Source: Fusobacterium massiliense (GTDB lineage: Bacteria > Fusobacteriota > Fusobacteriia > Fusobacteriales > Fusobacteriaceae). From it: 64,000 bases of DNA. The stretch lies in NCBI RefSeq assembly GCF_900095705.1, contig NZ_LT608325.1, forward strand, positions 157,043 to 221,042. The letters are read 5' to 3'. Both the position numbers and the translations under genes were made by a program. Every line of letters starts with the position of its first letter. Positions within the stretch are counted from its first letter, which is position 1. The notes below the pieces were generated by a model. It was not told the origin of the DNA. It made no database searches and was given only the letters and a program-made list of their open reading frames with translations. Below are positions 27,981 through 42,091 of the stretch, one piece after another.

Positions 27981-28048
27981 GTTAAAAAAAATGGCTATTT
28001 GTCAAATAGTGTTGATGAAAAAGTTTAGACTATGACTTAGCATAATTA

Positions 28049-28090
28049 AGAGAATTTTTGAGAATAAAAACTTGAAAATTCTCTTTTTTT
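28049..28090 (+). terminator. terminator inside insertion-sequence end (copy 1)
   Basis: AGAGAATTTT / AAAATTCTCT with seven T, read on the plus strand. It would stop host transcripts from running antisense through the transposase gene. The same structure is at 40607-40648 in copy 2. Confidence 0.7.
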
Positions 28091-28123
28091 ATTGTTACTA
28101 AAATTCATTATTGCATAAAAAAA

Positions 28124-29410
28124 TTAGGCATTAATTGAAACAATTCCTTCTTGAATTAATATACGCTTTTTAAAATTGCTAAATTTTGAATATCCAAATG
28201 CAGTTCTTTTTATTGATTTAATTTTATTATTTAAACCTTCTATTACTCCATTAGTAATATTAGTTTCAAACATATTTTTAATATATTCCATATATTTTTT
28301 AAGAGTTTTTAAAGCAACTCTCATTTTCTCAGAAATTTTTTCTTTACTTCCAAGATATTTTTCTACTATTCCTTCAAATTTTTTAAAATTATTATGTTTA
28401 ATTGCTTGGATAATATCTTGATATATATTAAAATTAATTTCTAATTCAGGTATTTTATCAAGAATATAATCTACTTTATCTTTACTACTTAATTTGTACT
28501 TAAAACTTTGACAGTAGTATTTTATTTCGCAAAGGTCAGGGTAATATTTTAATAATAACTTCCAAAATCTCTTTAATTTTCTTTTTAAAGAAGGATCTTG
28601 AATAGAGTTCATAATATATATTCTAGTTTGATTAAATGCTCTGTTAATAAGGTTAACAATATGAAATTTATCTAAAACTATTTCTCCATTAGGAAAGATA
28701 GATTTAACTAAGCTAATATATGGAGCATACATATCCATACAAATATATTTCACATTATTTTTAGATTTTAAAGAAAATCTAGAAAAATATTCTGTAAGAG
28801 AAGGAAGTCTTCTATCTTCCACTATATCGATAATGCTCTTACTTTGAAAGTCAGCAAAAACAAAAGACATAGCGCCATCAATATTTTTAACAGATTTAAA
28901 TTCATCAATACAAATAGTTTCTGGTAAATGTTCTCTATTAACTTTAAAATTAGAATAGCAGGTATCCATAATTCTTTGCACAGAAGAGACGGAAATATTA
29001 TATCTCTTAGCAATAGATGTAAGAGAAATATTTTTTTGAAGTTCAAGCGCGATAGTATATTTAAGATTATTAGATATACTAGAATTATTACTAACAACAT
29101 TAGTGGAAGGTGAAAAAGTTTTTTTACAATCCTTACAAATATACCTTTGTATAGTAAGCTCAAGTTCAATATTGTAATTCTGGTAAGGAATATACCTAAC
29201 TTTACGAATTCTTGAACCATTTTTAACAATATTTTTAGAGTTACAATGTGGACAAGCACAGTGATTAGATTTAAGAAATCCTTTAAAAACTTTAATAAAG
29301 AAATCGTTTTTTTTAATAATTTGAAAATAGTTTTCTTCTGGAAAAGAAATATTATTATCTTGAATATTTAAGATATTTTTGATAAAATCAGATGGAGACA
29401 ATGAAATCAC
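28124..29410 (-). CDS. ISL3-family transposase, copy 1
   Basis: A 428-residue DDE transposase. The N-terminal zinc-binding region (CACPHCNSKNIVKNG ... YICKDCKKTF) and a helix-turn-helix (ISLTSIAKRYNISVSSVQRI) precede the catalytic part, with ICIDEF, LDKFHIVNLINRAFNQ and the C-terminal NGVIEGLNNKIKSIKR. The reading frame is complete. The first start codon is GTG at 29410; TTG 29401 has better spacing from AAAGGAA. It differs from copy 2 at one residue noticed (Lys versus Asn in GFL(K/N)SNH). Confidence 0.95.
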   Translation of the reverse strand: MISLSPSDFIKNILNIQDNNISFPEENYFQIIKKNDFFIKVFKGFLKSNHCACPHCNSKNIVKNGSRIRKVRYIPYQNYNIELELTIQRYICKDCKKTFSPSTNVVSNNSSISNNLKYTIALELQKNISLTSIAKRYNISVSSVQRIMDTCYSNFKVNREHLPETICIDEFKSVKNIDGAMSFVFADFQSKSIIDIVEDRRLPSLTEYFSRFSLKSKNNVKYICMDMYAPYISLVKSIFPNGEIVLDKFHIVNLINRAFNQTRIYIMNSIQDPSLKRKLKRFWKLLLKYYPDLCEIKYYCQSFKYKLSSKDKVDYILDKIPELEINFNIYQDIIQAIKHNNFKKFEGIVEKYLGSKEKISEKMRVALKTLKKYMEYIKNMFETNITNGVIEGLNNKIKSIKRTAFGYSKFSNFKKRILIQEGIVSINA

Positions 29411-29570
29411 TTCCTTTATGGTTATTTTGAGCGATTTAATTTTAACAGGAAAATTTCATTGTCTCAATTTTTTTTTTATTAAAAAATGGCATTAATAGAA
29501 ATTTTTTCTATCAACACCATTTAGTATACAACCAAAAAAATTTTAAAATCAAGAAAAAATAAAAATGTAA

Positions 29571-29581
29571 GGGGGGGGGGG
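29571..29581 (+). repeat. homopolymeric tract of 11 G upstream of the adhesin promoter
   Basis: Eleven consecutive G in a very AT-rich intergenic region, 38 bases before the -35 of the adhesin gene. Such tracts slip during replication and commonly cause phase variation of surface proteins. The distance suggests an effect on promoter activity rather than on reading frame. Confidence 0.8.
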
Positions 29582-29619
29582 TAATAAGTTGAACTTGTAT
29601 TCAATTGTAATAAAAAAAC

Positions 29620-29648
29620 TTGACATTTTACAAAAAATATGTTAAAAT
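29620..29648 (+). promoter_or_regulatory. promoter of the trimeric adhesin gene
   Basis: TTGACA (29620-29625), a 17-base spacer and TAAAAT (29643-29648). This predicts an untranslated leader of about 125 bases before the ATG, which is preceded by AAAGGGGAG. Confidence 0.75.
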
Positions 29649-29779
29649 TATACCTATCCATGTATTATATCTAATTTATACAAGTAAAGTATACTATAAA
29701 AATCAGATAAGGATTTTGAAAAAAAGTAATTTGAAATAGAAGTTTAAGGTTAAATAGTTTTTAATTTAAAGGGGAGATT

Positions 29780-32700
29780 ATGAATAAAGAAAGAGATGAA
29801 AAACTACTTAAATCGTGGTTAAAGAAAAAAATAACTATAACAACGGGAACTGTTGTAGCTTTTTTAATTACAGGAAGCATAGGAGCAACTGTTGCTTATG
29901 GGGCAAATGCTGGAAATGCTACTGGAACAGGTGATCCAACATCAGTATCGTATGGACCAAGTGCTAATGCTCAAGGAATGGAGTCGATAGCAATAGGTTC
30001 ATCAGCAAAAGCAAAAGAAGGACAAAGTATTGCGATAGGGGCTAAATCAGAAGCGACAGGGAAAGATGGAGCATTAGCTGTAGGTAGAGAATCGAAAGCA
30101 AGAAAAAATTCTGATATTGTTTTTGGTGGAGAAGCTGAAACTCGAAATCAAGGTGCTGGGTATAGTATTGCCATTGGTGCTGGTGCTATGTCGGGTAGTA
30201 ACAAAGGTGTTTTAAATCGTAATGGTGGAGATGCAGGTGGTGTAGCTATTGGTACAGGGGCTTATACAGGTGTAAATAGAGGTAATGTTTCTATAAATTC
30301 TTCTGTTGCTGTAGGAGCCGGTGCTGGAGCAGGATTTAGAAAATTAGATGCTAATAACATGCCTGCTGGAAATGCGACAGATGTTGACAACAATGAAGAA
30401 GTACTAAAAAAGGCTTTTGGTGTTAAAAATGTTGAGGATTATCAAACAATAGCTGGAGATACTAACGGATATACAAATGTAGATATTAATGAAGCAACGT
30501 CATTAGGACGTAATGCACGTGCTATAGGAGACCAATCTGTTGCAATAGGAGCTCAAACTATTGCAGGTATGGGTGCTATTGCTTTAGGTGGAAATGATAT
30601 TACTCAATTTGCAAATAAAAAATATTACAAATCAACGAAAGAAAATTTTAAAGTTACTGAAACAACAGATCATAATCAAGATGCAAAAATATCTGATGAC
30701 ACGATTAGTGGTGCATATAAAAGACTTGTTGGCACTAACTTAGATACTGTATATAAAGCAACTTATGCACAAGATGGATCAGTAGTACTAGGGGCTCAAG
30801 CTCATTCAGGAACACCATTGGGAACAGCACTTGGTACGAATGCCTTAGTTCGTAAAGGAGCCTTTGGTGCAACAGCAATTGGTGCCGGTTCGCAAATTCA
30901 AGCAAATGCAGAAGCAGCAGTTGCAATAGGGATGGGTTCTGTTGCTAATGGAGCTTATGCTGTAGCTGCAGGAACTGCTTCACTTGCAGAATTTGGAGAC
31001 GTAGCAATAGGTTATCAAGCAAAAGCCTCTGGTAAAGATGGTGCTATTGCAATGGGACGTGCAACTAATGCTCAAGGGGACTCATCTGTAATGATCGGTG
31101 GAGCAAATATTAAATCTGCTTCACAACAAAATACAACTTTTGAAAAAGCAACTGGTCAAACAACTATGAAAACAATAACTGAAACAATAAATGGGAAGTC
31201 TGTTAAACGTGAATATAGTTTTGCTGAAACAAAAAATACTAATGGGACAGTAGCTGACGCATATAAAGAGTTGACTGGACGTAATATGGAAATTTCTGAA
31301 ATTAATTTTGGAGATAATGCAAATAAAAATGGACATGCTTCTACCTCTTTAGGTGTACACGCTTTATCAAAAGGAAACTTAGGAACAGCAATTGGGGCGA
31401 GTTCTCGTGCTGATGCGATAGGTTCTGTAGCTCTAGGTGCTGGAGCTCATGCAACTAGACAAAATGCTGTTGCAATTGGAACAGGTTCTACAACTGAATT
31501 AGTAGGTACACGTCAATTAAGTGTAAGTTATGATAAAGATGGTAATATTGTTGATGATAATTCAAAAGAAAAAGCTTACACATTTAACTGGGCAGGGGGT
31601 ATTAATACTTCTGAAGGGGACGTGGTTTCGTTTGGTAGTTCTGGGGCTGAACGTCAATTAAAAAATGTTGCAGCAGGTCGTGTGGCACAAGATTCTACTG
31701 ACGCAATCAATGGTTCTCAGTTGAACTCTATTGCTCAAAAAGTAGCTTCAGGATGGAATATTGGTGACAAGAATAAAGCTAAAGTTGCTGGTATTGGTAC
31801 TGAAGACCAAGTTAACTTTATTGATGGTAATGGAACAACTGTTACGGTTGAGAAACAAGAAGAAATAAAAAATGGAACTACTATAACAACACCAAAAGGA
31901 GCTAATGTTAAATTTGATGTAAAAGCTAAAGATGGATCTATTACATCTGATGCAAACGGTATTTCTGTCAATACAGATGGAACTACTATTACTAAAGATG
32001 CAGATGGAAAATTAAAAGTAAATACAGGGAATATTACAAATAATAATGGAGTACCAACAGTAGCAGATGCAGATAAAAATAAAATAGCAACTGTAGATAC
32101 AGTTACAAACGCTATTAAGGATTCTTATTGGATAGCTTCAGCAGAAAAAGATGGTACAAAAAAAGGAACAGATGATAATATAAAAGCGGGTACAAAAGTA
32201 ATATTTGATGCTGGGAAGAATATAGAAATAGAACATAGTACTGCAAATAAATTTACTTTTAAAACAGTAGACACTCCTGAATTTAAAGATATAACTTTAA
32301 ATGACGGAAGTAGTGCAACACCAAATAAAGTTAAATTAGCACCAACAACAGATGGTCTAAAATTGTCTAAAGGAGATAATGATAATTCTCCTGTAAAAAT
32401 TACAAATGTAAAAGATGGAGATATTTCAGCAAATTCTAAAGATGCTATTAACGGTAGTCAATTTCATAAAGTGGCTAAAAATACAATTAAATTAGCGGGT
32501 CAAAATGAAGGGGCTACAGCGACTGAAACAGAAAAACAAGAGTTAGATAAAACAGGTGGAATTAAATTTACTGTAAAATCTAGTGATGGAAAACTATTAG
32601 ATGTGGTAGCGGCTGGAGATACAATTACATTGACACCAAAAACAGCTAAACTTACAGCAGATACAAATGGAGTGCCACAAGCTAATACAACTAGTGGTAA

Positions 32701-35700
32701 ATTAGTAACAGCTGATGATTTAATAACAACATTACAAGGAATGGGTTGGAAAGCTACAGCAGATAAAGATGGTACTGGTACAGTAACAGGGAATGCAGAA
32801 GAACTTATAAAAGCAGGAGAAAAAGTAACATTTAAAGCAGGGAATAATTTAGCAATTACACAAGCTGGTAAAAACTTTATCTATTCCTTAAATCCAGTAT
32901 TAACTGGCTTAACAAGTGCTGAATTTAAAGATGCTGAAGGAAATACATCTAAACTTGATGGAACTGGATTAACAATAACACCTAAAGATACTACTAAAAA
33001 ACCTGTATCTGTAACAAAAGATGGAATAAATGCTGGTGGAAATACTATATCAAATGTAAAAAGTGGTTTAGAACCAATAAAAGCAGCAGATAATAAAGCA
33101 GCAGCAGGATTAGTAAACTTAAATACTCCAAATGTATCTGATAATAATGCAGTAACAGTGGGAGATATAAAAAATCTAGGATGGGTAGTTTCAAGTGATA
33201 AAACTACTGGAAATTTAACTGAACCATTTTCGGCACAAGTAAAAAATGCAAATGAAGTAGAATTTATAGGGAAAAATAATGCAGTAGTAAGTGCAACAAC
33301 TGATGGAAATGGGAAACATACTGTAACAGTAGATGTAACTGTACCAGATGTAGAAAAAGGAACAATAGAACTTGATGGAGATAATAAAGGAAAAGTTAAA
33401 TCGAAAACAGGAGATGGAGATAAATTTACAACAGTTGATACAGTAGTAAATGCTATAAATAGTGCAGCATGGAAAGCAACTTCAGGTAAAGAAGGTAGTG
33501 GAGCAGCAGCAACAGGACATACAGAGTCAGTTGAAGAAATTAAAGCAGGAGATACTGTAACATTTAAAGCAGGAGATAATTTAAAAATTAAACAATCTGG
33601 AAAAGAATTTACATATTCATTAAATCCAGAATTAACTAACTTAAGTAAAGTAGAAGTTAAAGATAATAAAGGAAATTCAGTAGTAACTACTCCAACAGGA
33701 ACAACTGTAACAGATAAAGATGGAAACACATCTAAACTTGATGGAACTGGATTAACAATAACACCTAAAGACACTACTAAAGAGCCTGTATCTGTAACAA
33801 AAGATGGGATAAATGCTGGTGGAAATGCGATATCAAATGTAGCAGGAAACTTAGATGGAGCTAAAAAAGATACAACTTCACCAAAAACATCATCTACAGG
33901 ACCATCAACAACAGATTTACCAAATATTGTAAATAATGCAGCAACAGTAGGAGATGTATTAAATGCAGGATGGAACCTACAAAATAATGGAACAGCAAAA
34001 GATTTTGTAAAACCTTATGATACAGTAAACTTTGTAGATGGATTAAATACAAAAGCAATAGTAACAACAGATGCAGAGGGAAAAGTAAGTAATGTACAAA
34101 TAGATGTAAAAGACTTACCAATAGCATATACAAATGAGGCTGGAGATAAAGTAGTAAAAGCAGCAGATGGAAAATACTATAAAGAAAGTGATTTAGAAGG
34201 AAAAGTATTTGATCCAAAAACTAAAACATTTAAAAATGCAGATGGAACAGCAGCAGCACAACCAACAGAAGTTACAAAAAATAATATAAAAACTAATTTA
34301 GTAAATCCAAATGCAGCAGAAGATAAGAAAGCGACAACAGATCCAAGTACATTAGGAAATGTTAAGAGTGGATTAGATACAATAAAAGATGCAAATGGAG
34401 GAACTACACCTAGCACAACAGATAAAGCAGCAGGATTAGTAAACTTAACTAATGATAAAGTGCCTGATAATAATGTAGCAACAGTTGGCGATTTAAGAAA
34501 AATGGGATGGGTAGTAAGCTCAGATAAGACAACAGATGGAACAGGAGAATATTCAGAGCAAGTAAAAAATGCAAATGAAGTAAGATTTGTTGGAAAAGGA
34601 ACAGCTACTGTAAGTGGAAAAACTGATGATAAAGGTGTAAGAACAATAACAGTAGAAGTAAATGACCAAGTATCAACAAATAATTCAGTTACACCAGTTG
34701 TATACACTAAAGCAGATGGTACGAAAGTATATCCAATAAAACAAAAAGATGGAACAACTAAGTTCTTTGAAAATCCAGATGGAACAGGAGCAGAAGTACC
34801 AAAAGAAGAAGTAAAAACATCAGTAAATGGACCAGATGGAACTAAGAATCCAACTACATTATCAAATGTAAAAGGAAATTTACCACAAGTAAATGATAAA
34901 GATAAAACAGTATTTGATCCAAAGACAGGAACAACAAAACCAGCTGATGATAAAAATACAACAAAAGCGCCTATTACAGCAGCAGAAGCAGCAGATATTG
35001 TAAAAAATGCAGGAAACAATGCAGCGACAGTAGGAGATGTATTAAATGCAGGATGGAACTTACAAAATAATGGAACAGCAAAAGATTTTGTAAAACCGTA
35101 CGATACAGTAAACTTTGTGGATGGATTAAATACAAAAGCGATAGTAACAACAGATGCAGATGGAAAAGTAAGCAATGTGCAAATAGATGTAAAAGACTTA
35201 CCGATAGCATATACAAATAAAGATGGAGATAAGGTAGTAAAAGCAGCAGATGGAAAATACTATAAAGAAAGCGATTTAGCAGGAAAAGTATATGATCCAA
35301 CAACTAACACATTTAAAAATGCAGATGGTACAGCAGCAACACAACCAACAGAAGTTGCAAAAGATAGTGTAAAAACTAATTTAGTAAATCCAAATGCAGC
35401 AGAAAATAAAGCAGGAGATCCAACACAATTAGGAAATGTTAAGAGTGGATTAGATACAATAAAAGATGCGAATGGAGGAACTACACCTAGTACAACAGAT
35501 AAAGCAGCAGGATTAGTAAACTTAACTAATGATAAAGTATCTGATAATAATGCAGCAACAGTTGGCGATTTAAGAAACATGGGATGGGTTGTAAGTTCAG
35601 ATAAAACAACAGGAGATTTAGGAACAGCTTACAATGACCAAGTAAGAAATGCTAATGAAGTTAAATTTGTTGGAATAAACGGAGCAACAGTTTCAGGAAA

Positions 35701-38700
35701 AACTGGAACAGATGGTGTAAGAACAATTACTGTTGATACAAAATCTTTAAAAGATAACACACCATTTGAATATGGAATAAAAGATCCAACAACAGGTATA
35801 ACAACTCCAGTAGAAAAAGCGACAGATGGAAAATATTATAAACCAGCAGACTTAAATGATGATGGAACACCTAAGGCAAATGCAACACCTCTATTAGATC
35901 CAACAAATAATGCTGATCCAAATAAGGATAATTTAGTTGTTAATGCTAAGGGAGATAAACCTCAAGAGGTTAAAAATCTAAAAGGAAACTTAGATCAAAC
36001 AGTTAATAAAGGTGATAAAGTTCAAGATGCAAATGGAAAACTTGGAACAACAACTGCAACAACACCAACAACTGAAAAATCAGCACCAACTAATGTTGAT
36101 ACAATCTACAACAATGCAGCAACAGTAGGAGATGTATTAAATGCAGGATGGAACCTACAAAATAATGGAACAGCAAAAGATTTTGTAAAACCTTATGATA
36201 CAGTAAACTTTGTAGATGGATTAAATACAAAAGCGATAGTAACAACAGATGCAGACGGAAAAGTAAGTAATGTACAAATAGATGTAAAAGACTTACCGAT
36301 AGCATATACAAATGAGGCTGGAGATAAAGTAGTAAAAGCAGCAGATGGAAAATACTATAAAGAAAGCGATTTAGAAGGAAAAGTATATGATCCAATAACT
36401 AAAACATTTAAAAATGCAGATGGAACAGCATTAGATAAACAACCAACAGAAGTTGCAAAAAATGATATAAAAACTAATTTAGTAAATCCAAATGCGGAAA
36501 AAAATAAAGCAGGAGATCCTACACAATTAGGAAATGTGGAAAATGGAGCAAAAACATTTGAACCAGCAAAAGATGCAGACAAAAAAGATTTAAAATTAGG
36601 AAATGATGGAAAATGGTATCCAGCAGATAAAGTTGGTAAAAATGGTGAACCAGAAAAAGGGGCAACACCAGTTACACCAGTAAATCCAGGTAAAGCAGGA
36701 TTAGTGGACTTCTCTAAATCTAACCCTACAAATGCAGCAACAGTAGGAGATTTACAAAATATGGGATGGGTTGTAAGTTCAGATAAAACAACAGGAGATT
36801 TAGAAAAAGCTTACAATGACCAAGTAAGAAATGCTAATGAAGTTAAATTTGTTGGTAAAAATGGAATACAAGTAAGTGGAAAAACTGATGATAAAGGTGT
36901 AAGAACATTAACATTTGAAATAGAAGCTGGAGAAGTAACTCCAACAGAAATAACAAAAGCTGATGGAACTAAACTTGTTAAAGTTGGAGATAAAGTTTAT
37001 AATCCTGAAGATATAGGAACAGATGGAAAACCTAAACAAGGAAAAGATCCAGTAGGAACTATAGCAAAAGATGGAAAAGTTTATAATAATGGAGATGTGA
37101 CAAACGGACAACCAAAAGAAGGAGTAAACCCTATAGATGGAATAACTGTAACTCCAAATAATGGATCTAAGTTTGTAACAGGAAACCAAGTAGCAGATGC
37201 TATTGAAAAATCAGGATTTGTTGTAGGAAAAAATAATAAAGCATTATCAGCAGCTGATTTCAAAAATGAAGATGAAAAAGTAAATCCTAATGATGAATTA
37301 AGATTTGCAGATGGAGATAATACTAATGTAAAACTTGCAACAAAAGAAGTGCTAGATGCCTCTGGAAAAGTTAAAACAGTAACAACAGTAAAAGTTGATG
37401 TGGTAGACTTACCTGTAAAATATACAGATGCAGATGGAAACATTGTTAAAAAAGGTGAAGATGGGAAATATTACGATCCTAAAGATTTAGACGGAAAAGT
37501 GTATGATCCAGCAACTAAGACATATAAAAATGCAGATGGAAAGCCTTTAGATAAACAACCTGAAGCAAAAGATAATGATAAAATAGTATCTAGTCTAGTA
37601 AATCCAAATGATGCAAAAGATGGTAAAGTTGGAACGCCAAGTACATTAACAAATGTAGCAAATGGAGCAAAAACATTTGAACCAGCAAAAGATGCAGACG
37701 GAAACGATTTAAAATTAGGAAATGATGGAAAATGGTATCCAGCAGATAAAGTTGGTAAAAATGGTGAACCAGAAGCAGGAGCAACACCAGTTACACCAGC
37801 AAATCCAGGTAAGGCAGGATTAGTGGACTTCTCTAAATCTAACCCTACAAATGCAGCAACAGTAGGAGATTTACAAAATATGGGTTGGGTTGTTTCAACA
37901 TCTGATACTGGATATAATGACCAAGTAAGAAATACAAATAAAGTTGATTTTAAACAAGGAACTGGTATTAAAATAAAAGGTGAAACAACAGCAGATGGAA
38001 CTCGTCAAATAACTATAGGATTAGATACAGGAAAAGTTACAAATGAAGTTACTATAACTAAGCCAAATGGTGAAAAAGTAAATGCAATAAAAGTTACTCA
38101 ACCAGATGGAACTGTTAAATATTATGAAAAAGATAAAGATGGAAAAGCTGACTTAAAGAAAGAAGTACCAGTTGGAACAGGAGATAATGATAATAAAGTA
38201 ACAGCTGATGACGGAAGTAGAGTAGTAACAGGAAACAGTGTAGCAACTGCTATTCAAGAATCTGGATGGAATGTTGGAAAAGCTGATGCTAAAGATGTTA
38301 CTAAAGCATTTGAAACAGAAGCTAAACTTCATGATAAAGTAAACCCTAATGATGATGTTAAATTTGTTGATGGAGATAATACAACAGTTTCTATGGTAAC
38401 TATTGACAGTCAAAATGATGATGGAACTAAGAAAGCAACAACATATATCAAAACAGATATTAACAGAGATATCAATATCGATAGTGTTACAGCTGGAGGT
38501 AAAAATGCAGATGGAACACCAGGTAAAGATGGGGCATTAACTGTTAAAGATAAAAATGGTAACGATAGAGTAAAAGTAGCTCCAAATGGAATGACTATTA
38601 CTCCAAATAAAGCTGATGGAACACCAGATCCAGATAAAGCAGTATCTCTAACAGATAAAGGATTAAACAACGGTGGAAATAATATCACAAATGTTAAATC

Positions 38701-39664
38701 TAATTTACCACAAGTAAAAGACGGAGATAAAAAAGCATATGATGTAAATGGAAATCCAATTGCAAATAAAAATAATACAGCAGCTCCTATTACAGCAGCA
38801 GATGCAGCAGATTTATTGAACCCTACAAAAGATGGAAAACCAAATCCAAATTTTGCAGGAAATAATGCAGCAACTTTATCTGATGTATTAAATGCAGGAT
38901 GGAACTTACAAAATAATGGAGCAGAAAAAGATTTTGTAAAACCATACGATACAGTAAACTTTGTAGATGGAACTAATACAACAGCAGTAGTAACTACATC
39001 TGATGATGGAACAACAAGTAAAGTAACATATAATGTATCAGGATTACCTATGTCATACACAGATAAAACTGGAAAACCAGTATCTAAAATAGGAGATAAA
39101 TATTATCCAGTAAATGAAAAAGGTGAAGCAATCAGTGAAAAAGGATTACCTGCTGTAGGTACAAATAAAGATGGAAAATTAGTAGATAGAGATGGAAATG
39201 TTATTGAACCAATTAATACAAAAGAAAATCCATTATCAACTAATTTAGTAAATCCAAATGTAGCAACAGATAAACAAACTACAACACCTACACAATTAGG
39301 AAATGTAGCACCAGCAGAAATTAGTCCAACATCTACACAAGCTGTAAATGGATCTCAATTATATCAAGTTGTACAAGAAATTAATCATGTAAATAATAAG
39401 GTTGATAAATTGGGAGATAGAGTAAACAAAGGTCTTGCAGGAGCAGCAGCTATGTCAGGAATTGAGTTTATGGAAATTGGAATTAACCAAGCAACAGTTG
39501 CAGCAGCAGTTGGAGGATATAGAGGAACACATGCAGTAGCAGTTGGTATAGAAGCAGCACCTACAGAAAATACAAGAGTAAATGCAAAAGCTTCATTAAC
39601 TCCAGGAGCTAGAACTGAAAGTATGTATTCAGTTGGAGCATCTTATAGATTTAACTGGAAATAA
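29780..39664 (+). CDS. giant trimeric autotransporter adhesin (YadA-like)
   Basis: A 3294-residue type Vc autotransporter. The signal region (1-42) has an extended charged start followed by a hydrophobic core ending near VAYGANA. Residues about 45-640 form a YadA-type head of repeated (S/A)xAIGxxAxA units. Neck motifs AINGSQ are at about 642 and 890, and AVNGSQLYQVV at about 3188. A very long stalk of near-identical blocks (GDVLNAGWNLQNNG..., VGDL.NMGWVVSSDKTTG) fills 900-3150. The last 80 residues are the membrane anchor (SGIEFMEIGINQ ... SVGASYRFNWK). Three chains form a surface fibre for adhesion. CbpF is a smaller relative known in Fusobacterium. Expression is probably phase-variable (G tract upstream). 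Confidence 0.95.
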   Translation: MNKERDEKLLKSWLKKKITITTGTVVAFLITGSIGATVAYGANAGNATGTGDPTSVSYGPSANAQGMESIAIGSSAKAKEGQSIAIGAKSEATGKDGALAVGRESKARKNSDIVFGGEAETRNQGAGYSIAIGAGAMSGSNKGVLNRNGGDAGGVAIGTGAYTGVNRGNVSINSSVAVGAGAGAGFRKLDANNMPAGNATDVDNNEEVLKKAFGVKNVEDYQTIAGDTNGYTNVDINEATSLGRNARAIGDQSVAIGAQTIAGMGAIALGGNDITQFANKKYYKSTKENFKVTETTDHNQDAKISDDTISGAYKRLVGTNLDTVYKATYAQDGSVVLGAQAHSGTPLGTALGTNALVRKGAFGATAIGAGSQIQANAEAAVAIGMGSVANGAYAVAAGTASLAEFGDVAIGYQAKASGKDGAIAMGRATNAQGDSSVMIGGANIKSASQQNTTFEKATGQTTMKTITETINGKSVKREYSFAETKNTNGTVADAYKELTGRNMEISEINFGDNANKNGHASTSLGVHALSKGNLGTAIGASSRADAIGSVALGAGAHATRQNAVAIGTGSTTELVGTRQLSVSYDKDGNIVDDNSKEKAYTFNWAGGINTSEGDVVSFGSSGAERQLKNVAAGRVAQDSTDAINGSQLNSIAQKVASGWNIGDKNKAKVAGIGTEDQVNFIDGNGTTVTVEKQEEIKNGTTITTPKGANVKFDVKAKDGSITSDANGISVNTDGTTITKDADGKLKVNTGNITNNNGVPTVADADKNKIATVDTVTNAIKDSYWIASAEKDGTKKGTDDNIKAGTKVIFDAGKNIEIEHSTANKFTFKTVDTPEFKDITLNDGSSATPNKVKLAPTTDGLKLSKGDNDNSPVKITNVKDGDISANSKDAINGSQFHKVAKNTIKLAGQNEGATATETEKQELDKTGGIKFTVKSSDGKLLDVVAAGDTITLTPKTAKLTADTNGVPQANTTSGKLVTADDLITTLQGMGWKATADKDGTGTVTGNAEELIKAGEKVTFKAGNNLAITQAGKNFIYSLNPVLTGLTSAEFKDAEGNTSKLDGTGLTITPKDTTKKPVSVTKDGINAGGNTISNVKSGLEPIKAADNKAAAGLVNLNTPNVSDNNAVTVGDIKNLGWVVSSDKTTGNLTEPFSAQVKNANEVEFIGKNNAVVSATTDGNGKHTVTVDVTVPDVEKGTIELDGDNKGKVKSKTGDGDKFTTVDTVVNAINSAAWKATSGKEGSGAAATGHTESVEEIKAGDTVTFKAGDNLKIKQSGKEFTYSLNPELTNLSKVEVKDNKGNSVVTTPTGTTVTDKDGNTSKLDGTGLTITPKDTTKEPVSVTKDGINAGGNAISNVAGNLDGAKKDTTSPKTSSTGPSTTDLPNIVNNAATVGDVLNAGWNLQNNGTAKDFVKPYDTVNFVDGLNTKAIVTTDAEGKVSNVQIDVKDLPIAYTNEAGDKVVKAADGKYYKESDLEGKVFDPKTKTFKNADGTAAAQPTEVTKNNIKTNLVNPNAAEDKKATTDPSTLGNVKSGLDTIKDANGGTTPSTTDKAAGLVNLTNDKVPDNNVATVGDLRKMGWVVSSDKTTDGTGEYSEQVKNANEVRFVGKGTATVSGKTDDKGVRTITVEVNDQVSTNNSVTPVVYTKADGTKVYPIKQKDGTTKFFENPDGTGAEVPKEEVKTSVNGPDGTKNPTTLSNVKGNLPQVNDKDKTVFDPKTGTTKPADDKNTTKAPITAAEAADIVKNAGNNAATVGDVLNAGWNLQNNGTAKDFVKPYDTVNFVDGLNTKAIVTTDADGKVSNVQIDVKDLPIAYTNKDGDKVVKAADGKYYKESDLAGKVYDPTTNTFKNADGTAATQPTEVAKDSVKTNLVNPNAAENKAGDPTQLGNVKSGLDTIKDANGGTTPSTTDKAAGLVNLTNDKVSDNNAATVGDLRNMGWVVSSDKTTGDLGTAYNDQVRNANEVKFVGINGATVSGKTGTDGVRTITVDTKSLKDNTPFEYGIKDPTTGITTPVEKATDGKYYKPADLNDDGTPKANATPLLDPTNNADPNKDNLVVNAKGDKPQEVKNLKGNLDQTVNKGDKVQDANGKLGTTTATTPTTEKSAPTNVDTIYNNAATVGDVLNAGWNLQNNGTAKDFVKPYDTVNFVDGLNTKAIVTTDADGKVSNVQIDVKDLPIAYTNEAGDKVVKAADGKYYKESDLEGKVYDPITKTFKNADGTALDKQPTEVAKNDIKTNLVNPNAEKNKAGDPTQLGNVENGAKTFEPAKDADKKDLKLGNDGKWYPADKVGKNGEPEKGATPVTPVNPGKAGLVDFSKSNPTNAATVGDLQNMGWVVSSDKTTGDLEKAYNDQVRNANEVKFVGKNGIQVSGKTDDKGVRTLTFEIEAGEVTPTEITKADGTKLVKVGDKVYNPEDIGTDGKPKQGKDPVGTIAKDGKVYNNGDVTNGQPKEGVNPIDGITVTPNNGSKFVTGNQVADAIEKSGFVVGKNNKALSAADFKNEDEKVNPNDELRFADGDNTNVKLATKEVLDASGKVKTVTTVKVDVVDLPVKYTDADGNIVKKGEDGKYYDPKDLDGKVYDPATKTYKNADGKPLDKQPEAKDNDKIVSSLVNPNDAKDGKVGTPSTLTNVANGAKTFEPAKDADGNDLKLGNDGKWYPADKVGKNGEPEAGATPVTPANPGKAGLVDFSKSNPTNAATVGDLQNMGWVVSTSDTGYNDQVRNTNKVDFKQGTGIKIKGETTADGTRQITIGLDTGKVTNEVTITKPNGEKVNAIKVTQPDGTVKYYEKDKDGKADLKKEVPVGTGDNDNKVTADDGSRVVTGNSVATAIQESGWNVGKADAKDVTKAFETEAKLHDKVNPNDDVKFVDGDNTTVSMVTIDSQNDDGTKKATTYIKTDINRDINIDSVTAGGKNADGTPGKDGALTVKDKNGNDRVKVAPNGMTITPNKADGTPDPDKAVSLTDKGLNNGGNNITNVKSNLPQVKDGDKKAYDVNGNPIANKNNTAAPITAADAADLLNPTKDGKPNPNFAGNNAATLSDVLNAGWNLQNNGAEKDFVKPYDTVNFVDGTNTTAVVTTSDDGTTSKVTYNVSGLPMSYTDKTGKPVSKIGDKYYPVNEKGEAISEKGLPAVGTNKDGKLVDRDGNVIEPINTKENPLSTNLVNPNVATDKQTTTPTQLGNVAPAEISPTSTQAVNGSQLYQVVQEINHVNNKVDKLGDRVNKGLAGAAAMSGIEFMEIGINQATVAAAVGGYRGTHAVAVGIEAAPTENTRVNAKASLTPGARTESMYSVGASYRFNWK
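33940..39060 (+). repeat. long stalk repeats within the adhesin gene
   Basis: A block encoding NNAATVGDVLNAGWNLQNNG, then PYDTVNFVDGLNTKAIVTTD and KDLPIAYTN, starts near 33940, 35021 and 36116, with a diverged copy near 38866. The first three are almost identical for about 300 bases. A second block (GNDGKWYPADKVGKNGEPE ... NAATVGDLQNMGWVVS) is duplicated at about 36545-36780 and 37655-37890. Recombination between them could change fibre length. Confidence 0.85.
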
Positions 39665-40550: not shown

Positions 40551-42091
40551 GGCTATTTGTCAAATAGTGTTGATGAAAAAGTTTAGACTATGACTTAGCA
40601 TAATTAAGAGAATTTTTGAGAATAAAAACTTGAAAATTCTCTTTTTTTATTGTTACTAAAATTCATTATTGCATAAAAAAATTAGGCATTAATTGAAACA
40701 ATTCCTTCTTGAATTAATATACGCTTTTTAAAATTGCTAAATTTTGAATATCCAAATGCAGTTCTTTTTATTGATTTAATTTTATTATTTAAACCTTCTA
40801 TTACTCCATTAGTAATATTAGTTTCAAACATATTTTTAATATATTCCATATATTTTTTAAGAGTTTTTAAAGCAACTCTCATTTTCTCAGAAATTTTTTC
40901 TTTACTTCCAAGATATTTTTCTACTATTCCTTCAAATTTTTTAAAATTATTATGTTTAATTGCTTGGATAATATCTTGATATATATTAAAATTAATTTCT
41001 AATTCAGGTATTTTATCAAGAATATAATCTACTTTATCTTTACTACTTAATTTGTACTTAAAACTTTGACAGTAGTATTTTATTTCGCAAAGGTCAGGGT
41101 AATATTTTAATAATAACTTCCAAAATCTCTTTAATTTTCTTTTTAAAGAAGGATCTTGAATAGAGTTCATAATATATATTCTAGTTTGATTAAATGCTCT
41201 GTTAATAAGGTTAACAATATGAAATTTATCTAAAACTATTTCTCCATTAGGAAAGATAGATTTAACTAAGCTAATATATGGAGCATACATATCCATACAA
41301 ATATATTTCACATTATTTTTAGATTTTAAAGAAAATCTAGAAAAATATTCTGTAAGAGAAGGAAGTCTTCTATCTTCCACTATATCGATAATGCTCTTAC
41401 TTTGAAAGTCAGCAAAAACAAAAGACATAGCGCCATCAATATTTTTAACAGATTTAAATTCATCAATACAAATAGTTTCTGGTAAATGTTCTCTATTAAC
41501 TTTAAAATTAGAATAGCAGGTATCCATAATTCTTTGCACAGAAGAGACGGAAATATTATATCTCTTAGCAATAGATGTAAGAGAAATATTTTTTTGAAGT
41601 TCAAGCGCGATAGTATATTTAAGATTATTAGATATACTAGAATTATTACTAACAACATTAGTGGAAGGTGAAAAAGTTTTTTTACAATCCTTACAAATAT
41701 ACCTTTGTATAGTAAGCTCAAGTTCAATATTGTAATTCTGGTAAGGAATATACCTAACTTTACGAATTCTTGAACCATTTTTAACAATATTTTTAGAGTT
41801 ACAATGTGGACAAGCACAGTGATTAGAATTAAGAAATCCTTTAAAAACTTTAATAAAGAAATCGTTTTTTTTAATAATTTGAAAATAGTTTTCTTCTGGA
41901 AAAGAAATATTATTATCTTGAATATTTAAGATATTTTTGATAAAATCAGATGGAGACAATGAAATCACTTCCTTTATGGTTATTTTGAGCGATTTAATTT
42001 TAACAGGAAAATTTCATTGTCTCAATTTTTTTTTTATTAAAAAATGGCATTAATAGAAATTTTTTCTATCAACACCATTTAGTATACAACC
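40551..42091 (-). mobile_element. intact ISL3-family insertion sequence, copy 2 (1541 bp)
   Basis: Same length and ends as copy 1, offset by exactly 12558 bases. Flanked by its own 8-bp target duplication TATTTTTC (40543-40550 and 42092-42099). Because the duplication differs from that of copy 1, the two copies inserted independently. One base difference was noticed between them, so the duplication is recent. Confidence 0.95.
40682..41968 (-). CDS. ISL3-family transposase, copy 2
   Basis: A 428-residue intact transposase, identical to copy 1 except for one residue noticed near the zinc region (Asn in GFLNSNHCACPHC). Same domain layout: zinc-binding N-terminus, helix-turn-helix, DDE catalytic domain. 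Both copies are likely active or were very recently. Confidence 0.95.
   Translation of the reverse strand: MISLSPSDFIKNILNIQDNNISFPEENYFQIIKKNDFFIKVFKGFLNSNHCACPHCNSKNIVKNGSRIRKVRYIPYQNYNIELELTIQRYICKDCKKTFSPSTNVVSNNSSISNNLKYTIALELQKNISLTSIAKRYNISVSSVQRIMDTCYSNFKVNREHLPETICIDEFKSVKNIDGAMSFVFADFQSKSIIDIVEDRRLPSLTEYFSRFSLKSKNNVKYICMDMYAPYISLVKSIFPNGEIVLDKFHIVNLINRAFNQTRIYIMNSIQDPSLKRKLKRFWKLLLKYYPDLCEIKYYCQSFKYKLSSKDKVDYILDKIPELEINFNIYQDIIQAIKHNNFKKFEGIVEKYLGSKEKISEKMRVALKTLKKYMEYIKNMFETNITNGVIEGLNNKIKSIKRTAFGYSKFSNFKKRILIQEGIVSINA

What the first reader, a model, noticed from the sequence alone, without database searches (positions are those of the whole stretch)
29571..29648. Eleven-G tract 38 bases upstream of the adhesin promoter: likely phase switch
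Long G runs are strikingly rare in this AT-rich DNA. The tract lies just upstream of TTGACA-17-TAAAAT driving a 9.9-kb surface adhesin. Length changes by slipped-strand mispairing could alter activator spacing or DNA bending and switch expression on or off, as with homopolymer-controlled adhesins in other mucosal bacteria.
Basis: partly seen in the sequence, partly recalled or inferred. Interest (0 to 1): 0.78.

Follow-up and report, generated by a model that had tools for sequence, protein, structure and literature searches.

The report
G-tract likely tuning an adhesin promoter
A run of eleven Gs just upstream of the promoter of a giant surface adhesin in a Fusobacterium-family bacterium looks like one of only four built-in 'slippage switches' in its genome, of a kind known from other mucosal bacteria but, as far as the searched papers show, not yet demonstrated for this type of adhesin in fusobacteria.

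Summary
It is far beyond chance. The 1.81-Mb genome has only four G or C runs of 7 or more (14, 11, 12, 11), none of 7-10. Two lie upstream of TAA genes; a third fills the -35/-10 spacer of a lipoprotein promoter.

Relatives carry the same theme. Both long G runs of a congener precede TAAs. In another genus five TAA paralogues carry G7-G12, three with 91-95% identical flanks and G7, G9, G10. Neisseria promoters of a homologous-head adhesin have C9, C14 and C21 44-46 bp upstream of TTGACA.

The contingency-tract reading is therefore well supported. Length change at this locus, and any effect on transcription, were not shown. The most likely mode is graded promoter tuning (H. pylori sabA, meningococcal nadA, Moraxella uspA1 type) rather than a clean on/off switch. 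An ISL3-family element with an 8-bp target duplication ends 37 bp upstream of the tract and limits how much upstream DNA can take part. New member of a known kind, apparently undescribed for fusobacterial TAAs.

The parts
29571..29581 (+). G11 homopolymer, putative contingency (slippage) tract, about -84 to -74 from the predicted transcription start
   Evidence: only G/C run of 6 or more in the window; one of four of 7 or more in the genome
29620..29648 (+). sigma-70-type core promoter TTGACA-17-TAAAAT with TG-extended -10; transcription start predicted near 29655
   Evidence: 11 of 12 matches, TG present, best hit of the region; start site inferred
29611..29619 (+). A-rich stretch directly upstream of the -35, resembling a proximal UP-element subsite
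   Evidence: Sequence; function inferred
29589..29604 (.). Dyad TTGAA-N6-TTCAA between tract and -35, possible operator; a chance occurrence in the window is plausible
   Evidence: Read from sequence; not tested further
29534..29570 (+). 37-bp A-tract-rich segment between IS end and G tract: all the native DNA left upstream, possible UP-like region
   Evidence: A-tract phasing score 71st percentile centred here, 99th centred at 29530 which includes the IS end: not decisive
29780..39664 (+). 3,294-aa trimeric autotransporter adhesin (YadA/Hia type)
   Evidence: Trp_ring 3e-81, YadA_stalk 2.3e-19, YadA_anchor 1.1e-9, YadA_head
27993..29533 (-). ISL3-family insertion sequence (transposase 28124-29410, minus strand) inserted upstream of the tract, 8-bp target duplication AAAAAAAT (27985-27992 and 29534-29541)
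40551..42091 (-). Second, near-identical IS copy downstream of the adhesin, same orientation, own target duplication TATTTTTC

Best explanation
The G11 run is a simple-sequence contingency tract. It gains and loses Gs by slipped-strand mispairing during replication, so that cells differ in the spacing and rotational setting (about 34 degrees per G) between the A-rich DNA upstream of the tract and the strong extended -10 promoter downstream of it. This changes how the RNA polymerase alpha-subunit C-terminal domains, or a regulator or nucleoid protein, contact the promoter, and gives graded high/low expression of the trimeric autotransporter adhesin. Shown: the tract, promoter, adhesin, IS boundary, the genome-wide pattern and the length differences among relatives. 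Inferred: slippage at this locus, its effect on transcription, and the alpha-CTD or rotational mechanism.
For: Only four G/C runs of 7 or more in 1.81 Mb, all of 11-14, none of 7-10, against fewer than 0.007 expected per base. Two of the four lie upstream of two of the genome's four TAA genes; a simple placement estimate gives p about 3e-6 (300-bp upstream zones, 11-bp tract at -209 and 12-bp tract at -272). A third sits exactly between TTGACA and TATAAT of a lipoprotein promoter, 19-bp spacer, the textbook porA type. The congener G001 has two such runs, both upstream of TAAs, one of them 42 bp upstream of TTGACA. G036 has five TAA paralogues with G7, G9, G10, G10 and G12; three of them have 91-95% identical flanks but G7, G9 and G10. 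Neisseria promoters of a TAA whose head region is 49-72% identical across N. bergeri and H. haemolyticus relatives have C14, C21 and C9 at 44-46 bp upstream of TTGACA. Precedents with measured effect: sabA T-tract (PMC4081817), nadA TAAA tract (PMC2791445), uspA1 G tract with graded output (PMC7302503).
Against: No second strain of this species was available, so no length variation was seen at this very locus. No expression data. The distance from tract to -35 is not constant in the genus (38 and 42 bp for two TAAs, 105 bp for the second TAA of this genome), which argues against one exact geometry. In G036 and at one G001 gene the predicted promoter is upstream of the tract, so the tract would be in the 5' UTR there; one mechanism does not cover all cases. 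Two of the four TAAs in this genome have no G tract.
Confidence: 0.62

Rival explanations
1. Spacing switch of the nadA kind: a repressor or activator binds on both sides of the tract (for instance at the TTGAA-N6-TTCAA dyad and in the A-rich segment upstream), and tract length sets whether the two bound complexes can cooperate or loop.
For: Same layout as nadA, where the repeat lies distally upstream and operators flank it (PMC2791445). A dyad lies between tract and -35 at about -58.
Against: The dyad is a chance-level match in AT-rich DNA and is not shared by the second TAA promoter or G001. The IS leaves only 37 native bp upstream of the tract.
Confidence: 0.17
2. The tract slips, but at this locus it has little or no effect because the near-consensus promoter downstream is sufficient, perhaps since the IS insertion removed the upstream partner. 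It would be a relic of a former switch.
For: Core promoter is 11/12 with extended -10 and an A-rich stretch next to -35. IS with a perfect 8-bp duplication ends 37 bp upstream; the seven or eight near-identical copies indicate recent activity.
Against: Before the insertion the upstream gene's terminator-like hairpin was only about 40-50 bp from the tract, so little native sequence was displaced.
Confidence: 0.14
3. The tract lies in the transcribed leader of a longer mRNA started upstream, and acts on RNA structure or translation, as its position relative to predicted promoters suggests in G036 and at one G001 gene.
For: In G036 paralogues and L070 a TTGACT/TTGACA promoter lies upstream of the tract. 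All TAA-associated tracts found in Fusobacteriaceae are G on the sense strand.
Against: In the window no good promoter lies between the upstream terminator and the tract, and the best promoter is downstream of it.
Confidence: 0.05
4. Chance or assembly artefact: an ordinary or mis-sized G run.
For: Homopolymer lengths are error-prone in assemblies.
Against: Expected count about 1e-4 or less per window; recurrence upstream of TAAs in independent genomes.
Confidence: 0.02

Closest known systems
Helicobacter pylori sabA promoter T-tract (rheostat)
   Same: Homopolymer upstream of the -35 of an adhesin promoter, A-rich DNA upstream of the tract; length tunes RNA polymerase binding there (PMC4081817).
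   Different: T rather than G; directly next to the -35 rather than 38 bp upstream; effect measured there, not here; SabA is not a trimeric autotransporter.
Moraxella catarrhalis uspA1 G tract
   Same: Poly-G tract upstream of a trimeric autotransporter gene; length gives graded high/low transcription (PMC7302503).
   Different: Other phylum; exact promoter geometry of uspA1 was not compared here; tract effect shown there only.
Neisseria meningitidis nadA TAAA tract
   Same: Repeat distally upstream of the core promoter of a trimeric autotransporter; modulates the level, not only on/off (PMC2791445).
   Different: Tetranucleotide repeat; NadR operators and an IHF site flank it; no such regulator shown here.
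porA/fetA/opc-type spacer tracts
   Same: G/C homopolymer in an outer-membrane protein promoter; the same genome has one of this type at G000:C5:402067.
   Different: Here the tract is outside the -35/-10 spacer.
Neisseria bergeri TAA promoter with C14 (L034) and relatives with C9/C21
   Same: Homologous adhesin head and a homopolymer 44-46 bp upstream of TTGACA.
   Different: C on the sense strand; promoter sequences not homologous; position may be convergent.

Membership tests
Simple-sequence-repeat contingency (phase-variable) locus | Unusually long simple repeat beyond chance | tested here: met
Simple-sequence-repeat contingency (phase-variable) locus | Located in the coding or promoter region of a surface-structure gene | tested here: met
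Simple-sequence-repeat contingency (phase-variable) locus | Tract length varies at this locus between cells or strains | not testable with these tools
   No second strain of the species held; viral-contig scan empty. Variation seen only in relatives
Simple-sequence-repeat contingency (phase-variable) locus | Length changes alter expression reversibly | not testable with these tools
   Needs reporter or protein assays
porA-type spacer switch | Tract lies between -35 and -10 | tested here: not met
   Tract is 38 bp upstream of -35; no -35-like hexamer at 15-19 bp on its upstream side
sabA-type rheostat | Homopolymer upstream of -35 with A-boxes upstream of it | tested here: inconclusive
   Layout present, but A-tract phasing is not clearly above background and the tract is not adjacent to -35
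nadA-type switch | Regulator operators flank the repeat | tested here: inconclusive
   One weak dyad downstream of the tract; nothing convincing upstream
Trimeric autotransporter adhesin | YadA-type anchor, stalk and head/Trp-ring domains | tested here: met
ISL3-family insertion sequence | DDE_Tnp_ISL3 transposase, terminal inverted repeats, 8-bp target duplication | tested here: met

The most novel reading that the evidence does not exclude
Fusobacteriaceae use homopolymer tracts as interchangeable plug-in variability modules on autotransporter promoters: poly-G far upstream, in the -35/-10 spacer or in the leader in some genera, poly-T in the spacer in others. Trimeric adhesin expression in these oral and gut bacteria would then be stochastic by design, through several mechanisms acquired independently.
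Probability: 0.45. Interest if true: 0.62.

Novelty: new member of a known kind. Interest (0 to 1): 0.5.

Why it matters
Fusobacterial adhesins mediate host-cell binding, and strain-to-strain differences in adhesin display are puzzling. The CbpF paper states that no study had demonstrated phase variation in F. nucleatum trimeric autotransporters and offers it as a possible reason why some isolates do not bind (PMC6346709). This locus and its relatives give named tracts whose length can be read from ordinary sequencing, so the question becomes directly testable.

Tried and rejected
Spacer reading: looked for a -35 upstream of the tract with the TAATAA behind it as -10; no TTGACA-like hexamer at 15-19 bp, rejected. 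Upstream promoter/leader reading for the window: no good promoter before the tract. IS carrying the tract: rejected, the second IS copy ends without it and the tract is 37 bp outside the element. Composite-transposon reading of the two IS copies: each has its own target duplication, so they inserted separately. A-tract curvature: phasing score not decisive. Same-species variation: no data; phage collection and viral contigs pattern empty; plasmid tblastn with the transposase gave only relatives below 60% identity.

Full report
Observation. The G11 run is at 29571-29581, the predicted promoter TTGACA-17-TAAAAT at 29620-29648 with a TG-extended -10, and the gap is 38 bp, exactly as reported. The promoter is the strongest sigma-70-like hit in the region (11/12), although the number of weaker hits (18) is about what shuffled sequence gives (16.0), so only this top hit carries weight. 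The gene 29780-39664 encodes a 3,294-aa trimeric autotransporter with Trp-ring, head, stalk and anchor domains.

Chance. The window has no other G or C run above five. The whole genome (1.81 Mb, 6 contigs) has four runs of seven or more, and they are 14, 11, 12 and 11 long. A gap from 7 to 10 followed by four runs of 11-14 is not what random sequence does; Markov models of order 1 to 4 expect between 1.9e-4 and 6e-3 G runs of 11 or more in the whole genome.

What the four tracts sit on. One is this one. One lies 272 bp before the start of a second TAA (691-aa open frame). One fills the spacer between TTGACA and TATAAT of a small lipoprotein gene, giving a 19-bp spacer. One (G14) lies in a short open frame in a contact-dependent-toxin/haemagglutinin-like region (naming by eye). 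Four TAA anchors were found in the genome; two of the four TAA genes have a G tract. The simple placement estimate, 3e-6 for two of four tracts within 300 bp upstream of TAA genes, ignores that the TAA class was chosen after looking.

Relatives. The family search covered 61 genomes, of which 35 have at least one G run of 9 or more. In genus g1, G001 has two tracts, both upstream of TAAs (one G9 lies 42 bp before TTGACA, the other 30 nt before the start), while the single tract of G002 is in a TonB-receptor-like frame and its TAA has T14 between a TTGCA-like and a TACAAT-like hexamer. In G036 five TAA paralogues carry G7, G9, G10, G10, G12; three of them have 91-95% identical flanks and differ by G7/G9/G10. 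In about 50 further autotransporter starts checked, no G run of 8 or more was seen; several had T11-T19. Some of these T runs sit between TTGC/TTGA and a -10-like hexamer, and two related pairs differ in length, T19/T11 and T12/T16, though flank alignment there is only 62-74%. So G tracts on TAA genes mark two genera, while the wider family more often uses T.

Neisseria and Haemophilus. Residues 31-660 of the adhesin are 72% identical to a Haemophilus haemolyticus TAA; N. bergeri matches 49% over residues 31-1421. The adhesin gene has 34% GC against 28% around it. The N. bergeri gene has C14 44 bp before TTGACA; related Neisseria genomes have C21 and C9 at 44 and 46 bp, flanks 76-89% identical. 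In G083 contigs end at the tract. The Haemophilus relatives have no such tract. Promoter sequences are not homologous, so the similar distance may be convergent.

The insertion sequence. An ISL3-family element occupies 27993-29533 with duplication AAAAAAAT on both sides; a second copy at 40551-42091 has its own duplication TATTTTTC. Seven copies are 100% and one 98% identical in the genome. The first leaves 37 bp of native DNA upstream of the tract. Removing it on paper puts a terminator-like hairpin of the upstream gene about 40-50 bp from the tract, so the ancestral upstream region was short too.

Mechanism. sabA shows that a homopolymer between A-boxes and the core promoter tunes alpha-CTD contacts; nadA shows a distal repeat working through flanking operators; uspA1 shows a G tract giving graded TAA transcription. 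The window's layout fits graded tuning. The choice between polymerase contact and regulator spacing is not settled by sequence, and a relic without effect is possible. Estimated chances: tract is length-variable about 0.85; it affects adhesin transcription about 0.7; polymerase-contact model favoured over the regulator-spacing model.

Literature. The CbpF paper says no study had shown phase variation in F. nucleatum TAAs. Searches for Fusobacterium with phase variation and repeat terms found nothing closer; a 2026 review mentions phase variation of TpsA/TpsB. Only open-licence papers were searched.

Noticed in passing
L107 (G000:C5:402067-402077): G11 fills the spacer between TTGACA and TATAAT of a small lipoprotein gene promoter (19-bp spacer): a porA-type phase-variable promoter in the same genome. 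A second of this type, G10 and an 18-bp spacer, is in G035 (L077).
   Followed up: partly
L105 (G000:C4:151184-151197): G14, the longest G run of the genome, in a short open frame within a contact-dependent-toxin/haemagglutinin-like region.
   Followed up: no
L119, L146, L171, L175, L137, L113, L124, L145: Poly-T runs of 11-19 upstream of autotransporter genes in other genera, several between TTGC/TTGA and a -10-like hexamer; related promoters differ in T number.
   Followed up: partly
L057, L080, L081, L141 (G036): TAA leaders with a conserved CCCC-N10-GGGG arrangement that includes the G tract, plus an inverted repeat followed by a T run: possible RNA-level switch.
   Followed up: no
window 27993-29533 and 40551-42091: Two identical-orientation, near-identical IS copies flank the adhesin; recombination between them would delete the adhesin gene. 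Both sit next to terminator-like hairpins. Many short end fragments of the same IS (about 75-95 bp) occur in the genome.
   Followed up: partly
window 29870-31760 with L032, L033, L034: Adhesin head 72% identical to a Haemophilus haemolyticus TAA over about 630 residues; higher GC than surroundings: likely exchange of adhesin heads between phyla.
   Followed up: partly
L047, L050, L054, L058, L082, L084, L085, L046: G runs of 9-16 inside frames resembling type III methyltransferases and TonB receptors in related genomes: likely further phase-variable genes (named by eye).
   Followed up: no
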